Assembly (NCBI RefSeq): GCF_013393945.1 | Contig: NZ_CP040297.1 | Span: 1,504,804-1,568,803 of the forward strand | Direction of reading: 5' to 3' | Length of the DNA stretch: 64,000 nt | From: Nostoc sp. TCL26-01 | GTDB taxonomy: Bacteria > Cyanobacteriota > Cyanobacteriia > Cyanobacteriales > Nostocaceae | In this document: one piece after another, positions 34,944-40,345 of the stretch | Position numbering within the stretch: position 1 is the stretch's first letter | How the letters are laid out: each line of letters starts with the position of its first letter | Notes under the pieces: generated by a model | The model's database searches: none | The model's input: only the letters and a program-made list of their open reading frames with translations | Told to the model about the DNA's origin: nothing | Translations under genes and position numbers: made by a program

Positions 34944-35187
34944 GTTAGGTTGTGATTCAAGATTGTTGTGGAAATGTCAAATTCTCAAAGAATTACCAAA
35001 ATAGATTAATTTTACAGCCTATTTCACTGATAATTCTTCTCATTTATTACCACTACCTAAAAAATAAAATCTATATCCATATGCTGATGTCTACTAACAA
35101 GAAACTTATTGTCTATCTCTATCAGTAACAGGTTTTTAGTCCTAGATTTGTACTGAGTTTATCGTTTTTTGAGAGGTTTTATTGGTC

Positions 35188-35216
35188 TTGACACTAGCAA
35201 ATTCTTCTGATATATT
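35188..35216 (+). promoter_or_regulatory. Sigma70-type promoter of the DAHP synthase leader
   Basis: TTGACA (35188-35193), a 17-bp spacer and TATATT (35211-35216): a consensus -35 and near-consensus -10 at ideal spacing. Transcription would begin near 35223, about 42 bases before the first leader peptide. Confidence 0.75.
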
Positions 35217-35264
35217 CGTTTTACAATAGCGCACATATATATCTTTTACCCTACATTTATACAA

Positions 35265-35321
35265 ATGTTCAGCAAAACCTACTATTTTTATTTTTGGTGC
35301 AAGGCGGTTCACTGGGAGTGA
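35265..35321 (+). CDS. Aromatic-rich leader peptide 1
   Basis: An 18-codon frame, MFSKTYYFYFWCKAVHWE, with eight aromatic residues (3 Phe, 3 Tyr, 2 Trp), six of them consecutive at codons 6-11. It has no strong Shine-Dalgarno. Its last codons (35304-35316) form the left arm of an antiterminator stem. Consecutive codons for Phe, Tyr and Trp, directly before a DAHP synthase gene, are what a ribosome-stalling attenuator would need. Translation is not proven. Confidence 0.72.
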   Translation: MFSKTYYFYFWCKAVHWE

Positions 35322-35357
35322 GTCGAGTTTTCCGTTGGAAACCGCCCAGTGAACCGC
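35304..35357 (+). promoter_or_regulatory. Antiterminator stem of attenuator 1
   Basis: GCGGTTCACTGGG (35304-35316) pairs perfectly over 13 bp with CCCAGTGAACCGC (35345-35357). The right arm shares ACCGC with the left arm of terminator 1, so the two structures exclude each other. A ribosome stalled on the aromatic codons would leave the left arm mostly free; one reaching the stop at 35319 would cover it. Confidence 0.7.
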
Positions 35358-35385
35358 AGAGCAGACTCTGCGGTTTTTGTTTTTT
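35353..35385 (+). terminator. Intrinsic terminator of attenuator 1
   Basis: ACCGCAGAG (35353-35361), loop CAGA and CTCTGCGGT (35366-35374) form a perfect 9-bp stem followed by TTTTTGTTTTTT. Confidence 0.82.
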
Positions 35386-35402
35386 AGGAGCAAAATCTCA
35401 TC

Positions 35403-35468
35403 ATGACGACCTATTTCAGTAATTGGTTTTATAGCTTTTACTTTTGGCCCAGAGCAAATTCCGGGTAA
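35403..35468 (+). CDS. Aromatic-rich leader peptide 2
   Basis: A 21-codon frame whose codons 4-15 read YFSNWFYSFYFW: nine aromatic residues (4 Phe, 3 Tyr, 2 Trp). An AGGAG ribosome site (35386-35390) sits directly after the U tract of terminator 1, so it would be made only after read-through. It shares FYFW with leader 1, suggesting tandem duplication. Its final codons (AAT TCC GGG) form the left arm of antiterminator 2. Confidence 0.75.
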   Translation: MTTYFSNWFYSFYFWPRANSG

Positions 35469-35503
35469 ATAGCGTCATGCTGATAAATCATACGCGCCCG
35501 GAA
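35459..35503 (+). promoter_or_regulatory. Antiterminator pairing of attenuator 2
   Basis: TTCCGGG (35459-35465) can pair with CCCGGAA (35497-35503), which is the left arm of terminator 2; a GCGT/ACGC pair (35472-35475 with 35492-35495) extends it. The left arm lies in the last codons of leader 2, giving the same stall-or-finish logic as attenuator 1. Confidence 0.65.
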
Positions 35504-35528
35504 CACGAGAGGTTCTGGGCTTTTTTTT
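35496..35528 (+). terminator. Intrinsic terminator of attenuator 2
   Basis: GCCCGGAAC (35496-35504), a 7-base loop and GTTCTGGGC (35512-35520) form a 9-bp stem with one G-U pair, followed by eight T. Confidence 0.88.
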
Positions 35529-35690
35529 AGTGAGTGAGTGAGGAGTGAGGAGTGCTGAGTGCTGAGTGCTGAGTAAAGAGTGAGGGAGTGAGAGAGCGAG
35601 TGAGGGAGTAAGAATTGCTAATGACTATTGACTAATGACTAATGACTATTGACTATTGACTATTGACTATTGACCAATGACCAACCTATT
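35529..35690. repeat. Heptad repeats between attenuator 2 and the DAHP synthase gene
   Basis: GTGAGTGAG and GAGTGCT-type units (35529-35610) are followed by GACTATT/GACTAAT STRR heptads (35621-35684). They end just before the AGGAG ribosome site at 35691. Confidence 0.8.
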
Positions 35691-35704
35691 AGGAGAATTA
35701 AATC

Positions 35705-36577
35705 ATGATTAATGCCAAACTTGTTGCCCAATCTCACCCTGGTCATCAAACAATTGTTCGACTCTCAGACACCGTTGCTTTCGGTGGAGAGGAATTGGTG
35801 ATTATCGGTGGCCCTTGTGCGGTAGAGAGTTTAGAGCAAATGCAGACAGTAGCTCAAAAACTAGGCGGAGAAACTGTCCATGCTTTACGTGGTGGTGTTT
35901 ACAAACCGCGTACTTCTCCCTATGCTTTTCAGGGAATGGGAGAAGTTGGATTAGAAGTTTTAGCGCGAGTGCGATCGCACTATAATATTCCAGTCATCAC
36001 CGAAGTTATGGCAATTTCGCAAATTGAAGTAATTGCAACTCATGCGGATATGTTGCAGGTGGGTAGCCGGAATATGCAGAACTTCGACTTGCTCAAAGCT
36101 TTAGGGCAAGCTGGTAAACCCATACTCCTCAAGCGTGGTTTAGCAGCCACAATCGAAGAATTCGTGATGGCGGCTGAATATGTTGTCAGTCATGGTAATC
36201 CTGATGTGGTGCTGTGCGAACGAGGTATTCGCAGCTTCGATAATTACACCCGCAACGTTTTAGATTTAGGTGCAGTCGCCGCACTCAAGCAAATTACCCA
36301 CTTACCTGTGATTGTTGATCCTTCCCACGCCGTTGGTAAACGGGAACTAGTTGCACCAGTAGCCAAGGCGGCTGTAGCTTGTGGTGCTGATGGGTTAATT
36401 ATTGAGTGTCACCCAGAACCAGAAAAATCTGTATCTGATGCTCGTCAAGCTTTATCTCTGGAGGATATGGTGAGTTTAGTTGATAGTTTAAAGCCTGTCG
36501 CCTTAGCCGTTGGACGGAGAATATCAAAAAACAGAGGGGTGGGTTTCAAACCTACCCCTATTTGTTGTGTAATTTAA
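35705..36577 (+). CDS. aroF: 3-deoxy-7-phosphoheptulonate (DAHP) synthase, type I-beta
   Basis: First enzyme of aromatic amino-acid synthesis, condensing phosphoenolpyruvate and erythrose-4-phosphate. The 290-residue protein has the family signatures: VIIGGPCAVESLEQM, GGVYKPRTSPYAFQGMG, LQVGSRNMQNFDLL, LKRGLAATIEEF, CERGIRSFDNYTRNVLDLGAV, VDPSHAVGKRE and IECHPEPEKSVSDA. It begins only about 30 residues before the barrel, so the N-terminal ferredoxin-like (ACT-like) regulatory domain and any chorismate mutase domain are absent. The short C-terminal tail after VGRRIS is unusual. AGGAG at 35691 sets the ATG. Expression is probably controlled by the two attenuators upstream. Confidence 0.93.
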   Translation: MINAKLVAQSHPGHQTIVRLSDTVAFGGEELVIIGGPCAVESLEQMQTVAQKLGGETVHALRGGVYKPRTSPYAFQGMGEVGLEVLARVRSHYNIPVITEVMAISQIEVIATHADMLQVGSRNMQNFDLLKALGQAGKPILLKRGLAATIEEFVMAAEYVVSHGNPDVVLCERGIRSFDNYTRNVLDLGAVAALKQITHLPVIVDPSHAVGKRELVAPVAKAAVACGADGLIIECHPEPEKSVSDARQALSLEDMVSLVDSLKPVALAVGRRISKNRGVGFKPTPICCVI

Positions 36578-38917: not shown

Positions 38918-39937
<1,020 letters not shown>

Positions 39938-39990: not shown

Positions 39991-40345
39991 TATTGGTCAA
40001 TGGTCAATGGTCAATGGTCAATGGTCAATGGTTAATGGTCAATGGTCAATGGTTAATGGTTAATGGTCAATGGTTAATGGTTAATGGTCAATGGTTAATG
40101 GTTAATGGTCAATGGTTAATGGTTAATGGTCAATGGTTAATGGTTAATGGTCAATGGTTAATGGTTAATGGTCAATGGTCAATGGTTAATGGTCAATGGT
40201 CAATGGTTAATGGTCAATGGTCAATGGTCAATGGTCAATGGTCAATGGTCAATGGTTAATGGTCAATGGTTAATGGTTAATGGTCATTAGTAAAACTCTT
40301 AGCCAATACCCAGTACCCAATACCCAATACCCAATACCCATTACC
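39991..40345. repeat. Long STRR array with higher-order pattern, connector and CCCAATA units
   Basis: About 42 tandem heptads GGTCAAT or GGTTAAT (39994-40287). In the middle they are arranged as a 21-bp unit (C-T-T variant order) repeated about seven times. A connector TAAAACTCTTAG (40291-40302) follows, then five to six CCCAATA-type heptads. A plus-strand frame through the array is a by-product of the repeat and is not a gene. Confidence 0.93.

What the first reader, a model, noticed from the sequence alone, without database searches (positions are those of the whole stretch)
35188..35705. Two tandem aromatic leader peptides, each with terminator and antiterminator, before a DAHP synthase gene
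Seen directly: TTGACA-N17-TATATT promoter; leader 1 (35265-35321) with codons for YYFYFW; a perfect 13-bp stem (35304-35316/35345-35357) that overlaps the left arm of a terminator (35353-35374 plus T tract). Then come AGGAG, leader 2 (35403-35468) with nine Phe/Tyr/Trp codons, a competing stem (35459-35465/35497-35503) and a second terminator (35496-35528). Established: ribosome stalling at such codons controls trp and phe operons by attenuation, and DAHP synthase is the first step to Phe, Tyr and Trp. Inference: two attenuators in series would multiply the range of control and report all three amino acids. I know of no described example in cyanobacteria, but novelty could not be checked.
Basis: partly seen in the sequence, partly recalled or inferred. 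Interest (0 to 1): 0.95.

Follow-up and report, generated by a model that had tools for sequence, protein, structure and literature searches.

The report
Tandem aromatic attenuators before DAHP synthase
Upstream of a DAHP-synthase-family gene (the entry step to phenylalanine, tyrosine and tryptophan) in a Nostoc relative lie two short reading frames packed with codons for those amino acids, each followed by a predicted transcription terminator and a competing RNA fold; the pair of frames recurs in 134 of 142 sampled cyanobacterial genomes that have this gene, and it likely works as two brakes in series that are released when aromatic amino acids run short.

Summary
Both leader ORFs, both terminators and both competing stems are at the stated coordinates. 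Two ORFs with 6 aromatics in 8 codons never occurred together in 2000 shuffles. In an even sample of the class, 134 of 142 genomes with the aroF ortholog have both leaders, in 15 of 17 families; 5 keep leader 1 only and 2 leader 2 only. A terminator with overlapping antiterminator is found for leader 1 in 208 of 213 loci and leader 2 in 210 of 211, against 26 and 16 in shuffles. All four helices show compensatory change, in few pairs for the second unit. Best reading: two ribosome-mediated transcription attenuators in series. Modelling suggests leader 1 reports mostly Phe/Tyr and leader 2 all three, depending on the assumed footprint. Function is untested. Ten searches of a partial library listed no cyanobacterial precedent. 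Single aroF attenuators (Corynebacterium, Acholeplasma) and tandem attenuators with unlike signals (Salmonella mgtCBR) are in print. Verdict: a new variant of a known kind.

The parts
35188..35216 (+). Candidate promoter TTGACA-N17-TATATT
   Evidence: Sequence; 11 of 12 consensus matches, but promoter-like sites are no more frequent than in shuffles and no start site is known.
35265..35321 (+). Leader ORF 1, MFSKTYYFYFWCKAVHWE, stop TGA
   Evidence: leader 1 called in 213 of 216 nonidentical loci with enough upstream DNA; TGA stop in 194 of 213.
35304..35316 (+). Left arm of antiterminator 1 (AT1), inside the end of leader ORF 1
   Evidence: fold; 87.6% of cells paired, 8 of 13 pairs with changes on both sides, 67 such cells against 25.7 in shuffles; the two outermost pairs are unpaired in 34 and 30 of 64 rows.
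35306..35324 (+). Possible local hairpin (GGTTCAC/GTGAGTC) spanning the leader 1 stop codon; candidate pause hairpin
   Evidence: 87.5% of cells paired, but no covariation (251 of 500 shuffles as high); inference only.
35345..35357 (+). Right arm of AT1, overlapping the left arm of terminator 1
35351..35385 (+). Intrinsic terminator 1: stem 35351-35376 plus T-rich tract
   Evidence: 92.3% of cells paired, 8 of 11 pairs with changes on both sides.
35386..35390 (+). AGGAG, possible ribosome binding site of leader 2 (12 nt from the ATG)
   Evidence: Sequence; GGAG, GAGG or AGGA within 20 nt before 74 of 196 ATG-started second leaders and 6 of 209 ATG-started first leaders.
35403..35468 (+). Leader ORF 2, MTTYFSNWFYSFYFWPRANSG
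   Evidence: leader 2 called in 211 of 216 nonidentical loci.
35459..35465 (+). Left arm of antiterminator 2 (AT2), last codons of leader ORF 2
   Evidence: 93.7% of cells paired, 36 cells with change on both sides against 12.7, in 2 of 7 pairs.
35497..35503 (+). Right arm of AT2, within the left arm of terminator 2
35496..35528 (+). Intrinsic terminator 2: stem 35496-35520 plus eight T
   Evidence: 94.0% of cells paired, 57 cells with change on both sides against 18.2, in 3 of 9 pairs.
35705..36577 (+). aroF-like gene: type I-beta DAHP synthase, 290 aa, catalytic domain only
   Evidence: TIGR01361 and NF006421 over their cut-offs; PF00793 but no PF18152; best solved relatives 1zco and 1vs1. 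'Type I-beta' is a recalled label.

Best explanation
The leader of this aroF gene carries two short aromatic-codon ORFs in series, each followed by a predicted terminator and an overlapping antiterminator, and each unit is predicted to act as a ribosome-mediated transcription attenuator. Inferred steps: when charged tRNAs for Phe, Tyr and Trp are plentiful, a ribosome runs to the stop codon and covers the left antiterminator arm, which is coded by the last codons of the ORF; the terminator then forms. When a ribosome stalls earlier on aromatic codons, the arm is free, pairs with the terminator's left arm before its right arm is made, and RNA polymerase reads on. Leader 2 is transcribed only by polymerases that passed terminator 1, so full-length mRNA would need release at both sites. 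Predicted refinement: leader 1 responds mainly to Phe and Tyr, leader 2 to all three. Shown: ORFs, complementary stems, their overlap, conservation, covariation. Not shown: translation, termination, response.
For: Conserved order and frames: both leaders in 134 of 142 class-sample genomes with the ortholog, 15 of 17 families; over all loci, 208 of 216 by script with hand checks and 209 with one degenerate leader 1 added by eye. Terminator with overlapping antiterminator: 208 of 213 (leader 1) and 210 of 211 (leader 2); one shuffle of each gives 26 of 213 and 16 of 211. Compensatory changes in AT1, T1, AT2, T2 above the shuffles. Native arms pair better than the mean of up to 30 arms swapped in from other genomes: AT1 in 168 of 185, AT2 in 139 of 192. 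Terminator left arm predicted sequestered (P over 0.5) just before the right arm is made, ribosome in mid-core: 206 of 208 and 209 of 210; ribosome at the stop: 15 of 208 and 8 of 210. RNA models of the two units give a single match in each of the 19 and 18 of 25 family genomes that match. Phe codons in the leaders are TTT in 604 of 678 (leader 1) and 704 of 850 (leader 2), against 62% and 56% in two background sets. The gene downstream matches the enzyme that makes the common precursor of all three amino acids.
Against: No transcript, ribosome-profiling or reporter data. Equilibrium folding of the whole RNA is equivocal: 'terminator under 0.5 with the ribosome at the first aromatic codon and over 0.5 at the stop' was met in only 36 of 210 (leader 1) and 83 of 210 (leader 2), probably because a short upper terminator stem can coexist with the antiterminator. 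A stricter form of the test (stop below 0.2) was met in 42 of 208 and 91 of 210. In leader 1 a ribosome on the last Phe/Tyr codon (often after the Trp) leaves the arm usable in only 53 of 208, and with a 15-nt footprint even the Phe/Tyr codon before the last Trp does so in only 68 of 207. Slid controls of AT2 reach 20 and 23 cells with change on both sides against 36. Seven of 142 genomes have only one leader, so two are not indispensable. Coupling of transcription and translation in these organisms is assumed. The promoter is not supported by consensus counts.
Confidence: 0.88

Rival explanations
1. Two attenuators that are redundant: both answer to the same signal with the same sensitivity, and the second only lowers leak-through. 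(This shares the core of the best explanation and denies only its refinement.)
For: Both leaders carry Phe, Tyr and Trp codons; seven of 142 genomes do with one.
Against: Asymmetry across loci: with the ribosome on the last Trp codon the arm stays free (P over 0.5) in 209 of 210 second leaders but in 50 of 207 first leaders (12-nt footprint). This depends on the footprint: for first leaders 200 of 207 at 9 nt, 28 at 13 nt, 11 at 15 nt. The antiterminator arms of the two units look unrelated in sequence (by eye).
Confidence: 0.35
2. The leader peptides act in trans after release, as reported for peTrpL of Sinorhizobium, and the terminators mainly serve to make small RNAs.
For: A trans-acting trp leader peptide is in print (PMC7298713; title and start of abstract seen in search listings).
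Against: Conservation sits on the aromatic codons and on the bases that pair. RNA models find no second copy in 25 family genomes each, with the best 150 candidates of a first look scored per genome.
Confidence: 0.05
3. A known RNA switch (T-box, riboswitch or protein-bound leader) does the sensing and the ORFs are incidental.
For: A tandem switch with terminators would look alike at the level of terminators.
Against: No Rfam family at gathering score in the window; the six sub-threshold matches in 35150-35720 are far below their cut-offs. Aromatic frames are retained in relatives of 15 families with both.
Confidence: 0.04

Closest known systems
Corynebacterium glutamicum aroR leader peptide before aroF (Neshat et al. 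2014, as described in PMC11802643 and PMC4046766; passages seen)
   Same: Leader peptide with Phe-Tyr-Phe before a DAHP synthase gene; ribosome-mediated transcription attenuation.
   Different: The passages seen describe one leader, in an actinobacterium; here two leaders, each with Phe, Tyr and Trp codons and its own terminator.
uORFC-13-1 motif before aroF in Acholeplasma (PMC8632094; passages seen)
   Same: uORF with Phe codon(s) and a terminator before aroF; computational proposal. The same passage notes an older hypothesis of attenuation at E. coli aroF.
   Different: One uORF, 24 representatives, genus Acholeplasma and environmental sequences only.
Escherichia coli trp, pheA and pheST attenuators (PMC11802643 passages; mechanism details recalled)
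   Same: Ribosome stalling at codons of the pathway's product chooses antiterminator or terminator.
   Different: Single units (recalled). In trp the loss of leader translation favours termination (recalled); here the antiterminator is predicted to form by default without a ribosome (sequestration over 0.5 in 207 of 208 and 194 of 210).
Salmonella mgtCBR tandem attenuators (PMC3641672; start of abstract in a listing, and passages)
   Same: Two leader ORFs in one leader RNA control transcription into the gene.
   Different: They answer to unlike signals (ATP and proline), and the paper contrasts mgtCBR with the metE leader, which has two terminator sites; here both units are aromatic and each has its own predicted terminator.
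Tandem riboswitches of Bacillus clausii metE (as cited in PMC3641672, passage)
   Same: Two sensing units in series, with two terminator sites.
   Different: Ligand-binding RNAs, not leader peptides.

Membership tests
Ribosome-mediated (leader peptide) transcription attenuator | Short ORF with clustered codons for the pathway's end product | tested here: met
   0 of 2000 shuffles had two such ORFs.
Ribosome-mediated (leader peptide) transcription attenuator | Intrinsic terminator between leader ORF and structural gene | tested here: met
   Terminator-like hairpin of -8 kcal/mol or better for 209 of 213 first and 210 of 211 second leaders, against 61 of 213 and 33 of 211 in shuffles; T1 and T2 covary. 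Predicted, not assayed.
Ribosome-mediated (leader peptide) transcription attenuator | Antiterminator that excludes the terminator and whose free arm a translating ribosome can cover | tested here: met
   Overlap in 208 of 213 and 210 of 211; covariation; masked folding. Equilibrium folding of the full RNA was equivocal.
Ribosome-mediated (leader peptide) transcription attenuator | Structural gene belongs to the pathway of the sensed amino acid | tested here: met
   DAHP synthase by TIGR01361 and NF006421.
Ribosome-mediated (leader peptide) transcription attenuator | Pause hairpin that synchronises ribosome and polymerase | tested here: inconclusive
   A local hairpin at 35306-35324 pairs in 87.5% of cells but shows no covariation.
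Ribosome-mediated (leader peptide) transcription attenuator | Leader is translated and read-through responds to tRNA charging | not testable with these tools
   Needs cells or an in vitro system.
Tandem attenuators of the mgtCBR kind | Two leader ORFs in one leader RNA that respond to different kinds of signal | tested here: inconclusive
   Two ORFs are present, but both are rich in Phe, Tyr and Trp codons, which gives no sign of an unlike second signal; the response itself was not testable.
T-box or other Rfam leader | Match to the family's covariance model | tested here: not met
   No match at gathering score.

The most novel reading that the evidence does not exclude
An ancient cyanobacterial two-stage gate: attenuator 1 tests Phe and Tyr, attenuator 2 tests Phe, Tyr and Trp, and only transcripts that pass both reach aroF, whose enzyme has no ferredoxin-like regulatory domain, so that RNA-level control in series stands in for allosteric feedback at the entry to the shikimate pathway. 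To my knowledge it would be the first series of same-pathway leader-peptide attenuators with multiplied, non-identical specificities.
Probability: 0.45. Interest if true: 0.82.

Novelty: new variant of a known kind. Interest (0 to 1): 0.72.

Why it matters
Leader-peptide attenuation is known mostly from proteobacteria, actinobacteria and Firmicutes (recalled). Here is a candidate conserved in many families of cyanobacteria and doubled in series at the first step to Phe, Tyr and Trp. If it works as predicted, control of aromatic synthesis in these phototrophs would rest on two codon-reading brakes whose outputs multiply, which RNA 3'-end mapping can test directly. It would also matter in practice: engineering aromatic products in such cyanobacteria would likely need both terminators removed.

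Tried and rejected
Outer helix of AT2 (35446-35455 with 35512-35521), which ties up the right arm of terminator 2 in the window: native arms are hardly better than swapped ones (-9.07 against -8.61 kcal/mol; better in 105 of 182; at or below -8 in 108 of 182), so it may be a feature of some clades and is not part of the claim.

Local hairpin at the leader 1 stop: conserved but without covariation. It could explain why 194 of 213 first leaders end in TGA, but stays inference.

A wider regulon: in the window's genome, 700 bp upstream (210 bp for one) of the paralogous DAHP synthase, four chorismate-binding proteins, one PF00800 and one PF02153 gene show no leader of this kind; two weak GTG-started ORFs with 4 of 8 aromatics appear upstream of two chorismate-binding genes. 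Models R1 and R2 give one match each in 19 and 18 of 25 family genomes, the best 150 candidates scored per genome, and R1 in 24 of 194 phylum-sample genomes with stricter filters and 22 candidates scored. I did not check why the other genomes lack a match; two matches are orphans or interrupted (G116, G402).

Division of labour (leader on the domain-poor enzyme, none on the paralog with the ferredoxin-like domain): true in the window's genome, but 42 of 116 class genomes have no PF18152 match, among them genomes with the attenuated aroF such as G002 and G012, and one FXD-type gene (L254) has its own aromatic leader. Hence no general rule.

Equilibrium folding of complete leaders was equivocal; I then asked the kinetic question. 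Thresholds and leader-finding patterns were set after seeing the data: 193 of 223 entries (222 loci and the window again) were classified by script and 30 were looked at by hand. Of 30 loci of the FY(G/S/R)FYF pattern search that I translated (30 of the 76 places printed), 11 were leader 2 and 19 were not, five of these (L095-L099) sharing one frame. Weak Rfam matches, NsiR1 among them, are far below their cut-offs. Passages of PMC1262725, PMC7761380 and PMC7997468 gave nothing on this arrangement.
Full report
WHAT IS THERE. The sequence upstream of the DAHP synthase gene (35705-36577) was read directly. Leader 1 (35265-35321) reads MFSKTYYFYFWCKAVHWE; leader 2 (35403-35468) reads MTTYFSNWFYSFYFWPRANSG. 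A 13-bp stem joins the end of leader ORF 1 (35304-35316) to 35345-35357, which overlaps the left arm of terminator 1 (35351-35376). A 7-bp stem joins the end of leader ORF 2 (35459-35465) to 35497-35503, within the left arm of terminator 2 (35496-35520). Folds and z-scores are, the terminator scan. In 2000 dinucleotide shuffles of the upstream region no sequence had two ORFs with six aromatics in eight codons, and 10 had one. The gene matches TIGR01361 and NF006421 over their cut-offs. Its closest relatives in genome contigs are from Nostoc and Anabaena (90% identity).

CONSERVATION. I collected 80 aroF relatives from named genome contigs (the list was cut at the best 80 of 556). Three fragments without a gene start (G059, G261, G003) were left out, and five fetched stretches belong to matches of only 52-55% identity, taken as paralogs (L254-L258). 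Of 222 loci with a located start, 217 have at least 321 bp upstream; 216 of these are not identical. Both leaders were called in 208 of 216; one more (L240) has a degenerate leader 1, MFCPAGFYLGWHSLVHRL, seen by eye. Five have leader 1 only (L198, L249-L252) and two leader 2 only (L209, L241). The 216 may contain some species twice, because two collections were used. In the class sample alone, 134 of 142 have both (132 plain, one with a short upstream, and L240), 5 leader 1 only, 2 leader 2 only, and 1 (L186) ends too close to tell; 15 of 17 families have at least one genome with both. In all 208 the order is leader 1, then leader 2.

STRUCTURE IN RELATIVES. For each locus I looked for a hairpin with a T-rich tail after the ORF and the best duplex between the ORF's tail and the sequence up to the terminator loop. 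A terminator of -8 kcal/mol or better with an overlapping antiterminator of -8 or better was found in 208 of 213 first leaders (misses L049, L121, L152, L153, L158) and 210 of 211 second leaders (miss L124). One shuffle of each gave 26 of 213 and 16 of 211. On alignments of 64 first units (chosen for diversity from 209) and 86 second units (from 210), cells with a change on both sides of a pair were 67 against 25.7 in shuffles for AT1, 35 against 10.5 for T1, 36 against 12.7 for AT2 and 57 against 18.2 for T2. Sliding the partner by 1-3 columns dropped pairing from 88-94% to at most 64%, though slid AT2 still reached 20 and 23 both-side cells. For AT2 and T2 the number of pairs with a change on both sides (2 and 3) did not exceed the shuffles; the change sits in few pairs. 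The two outermost AT1 pairs are unpaired in 34 and 30 of 64 rows, and the two innermost T1 pairs in 16 and 35. These shuffles do not correct for relatedness.

HOW IT LIKELY WORKS. The left antiterminator arm is coded by the last codons of each ORF: A-V-H-W and the first base of E in leader 1, the last base of N and S-G in leader 2. A ribosome that reaches the stop covers it; a ribosome held on the aromatic codons leaves it free. I modelled RNA that ends just before the terminator's right arm and removed what a ribosome would cover (12 nt from the first base of the A-site codon). The terminator's left arm is sequestered with P over 0.5 in 206 of 208 first and 209 of 210 second leaders when the ribosome is in mid-core, and in 15 of 208 and 8 of 210 when it is at the stop. 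The stricter condition 'stop below 0.2' was met in 42 of 208 and 91 of 210. With the ribosome on the last Phe/Tyr codon of the core, which in many first leaders follows the Trp codon, first leaders keep the arm usable in only 53 of 208, second leaders in 189 of 210. Equilibrium folding of the full leader gave a much weaker contrast. Without any ribosome the antiterminator is favoured in this kinetic view (207 of 208; 194 of 210), so failure to start translation should let polymerase through. This is the opposite of what I recall for E. coli trp.

THE TWO UNITS DIFFER. First leaders mostly have one Trp codon (174 of 213), second leaders mostly two (132 of 211). With the ribosome on the last Trp codon the arm remains usable in 50 of 207 first leaders and 209 of 210 second leaders (12 nt); with 9 nt the first figure is 200 of 207, with 13 nt 28, with 15 nt 11. 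For the Phe/Tyr codon before it, first leaders give 200 of 207 at 12 nt, 196 at 13 nt and 68 at 15 nt. The prediction that leader 1 is weak for Trp therefore hangs on the footprint, for which 12-13 nt is recalled, not measured here. If the two brakes act independently, full-length transcription is the product of the two read-through probabilities.

THE ENZYME. The protein has the catalytic domain (PF00793) but no match to the ferredoxin-like domain PF18152, which the paralog in the same genome has. Its best solved relatives are chains of 262 and 276 residues, 1zco and 1vs1. Terminator 2 ends a median of 56 nt before the aroF start, leaving no room for a further 60-residue domain in at least half of the loci. 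It is tempting to say that RNA control replaces allostery, but insensitivity of AroF is not shown, and PF18152 was absent from 42 of 116 class genomes, some of which have the attenuated gene.

WHAT IS KNOWN. By titles, abstract beginnings and the passages I opened, none showed a cyanobacterial aromatic leader peptide or attenuator before a DAHP synthase gene. Some listings were cut (20 of 39, 20 of 38, 12 of 429, 12 of 17), and the library lacks most subscription journals, so this is weak evidence of novelty. Passages seen describe a single aroF leader in C. glutamicum, a uORF motif before aroF in Acholeplasma and tandem attenuators with different signals in Salmonella mgtCBR. The surveys PMC2965389 (passages) and PMC8632094 (passages) gave no cyanobacterial case in what I saw. 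No Rfam family matches at its gathering score.

VERDICT. The finding is real, conserved and well explained as two ribosome-mediated attenuators in series: a new variant of a known kind. What remains open is function, and above all whether the two brakes read different amino acids.

Noticed in passing
L254:761-895 (same leader in L294): In one genome of another family (G020) a DAHP synthase with the ferredoxin-like domain has its own aromatic leader, MKNSQFWYSFTFRSATGVRHRSG, and a strong terminator-like hairpin: perhaps a separate origin of the same control.
   Followed up: partly
L285 (G116): Orphan leader 1 whose terminator region runs by deletion into a broken aroF remnant; leader 2 and the gene start are gone.
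   Followed up: partly
L286 (G402): After leader 1 and its terminator come two ORFs that look by eye like an IS607-type resolvase and a TnpB-like protein (labels recalled, no family search); no R2 match in this genome.
   Followed up: partly
window 35474-35480 and alignment A2: GTCATGC just after the leader 2 stop, in the antiterminator 2 loop, is the majority base at each of its columns among second units; no explanation.
   Followed up: no
window 35306-35324: Leader 1 ends in TGA in 194 of 213 loci against 62 of 211 for leader 2; the TGA lies in a local hairpin with the left arm.
   Followed up: partly
window 35530-35690: Low-complexity GAGTGAGTGAG and TGACTATTGACTATTGAC repeats lie between terminator 2 and aroF in the window.
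   Followed up: no
window 39993-40259: An ORF made of a repeated MVNGQWL unit, i.e. a DNA tandem repeat, beside a ketol-acid reductoisomerase gene (38918-39934, PF07991 and PF01450).
   Followed up: no
leaders in all loci: Phe codons in the leaders are TTT far more often than in background genes (604 of 678 and 704 of 850, against 62% and 56%).
   Followed up: partly
G129 and G169 aroF matches: One stop codon each (TGA, TAG) is reported inside the aroF match.
   Followed up: no
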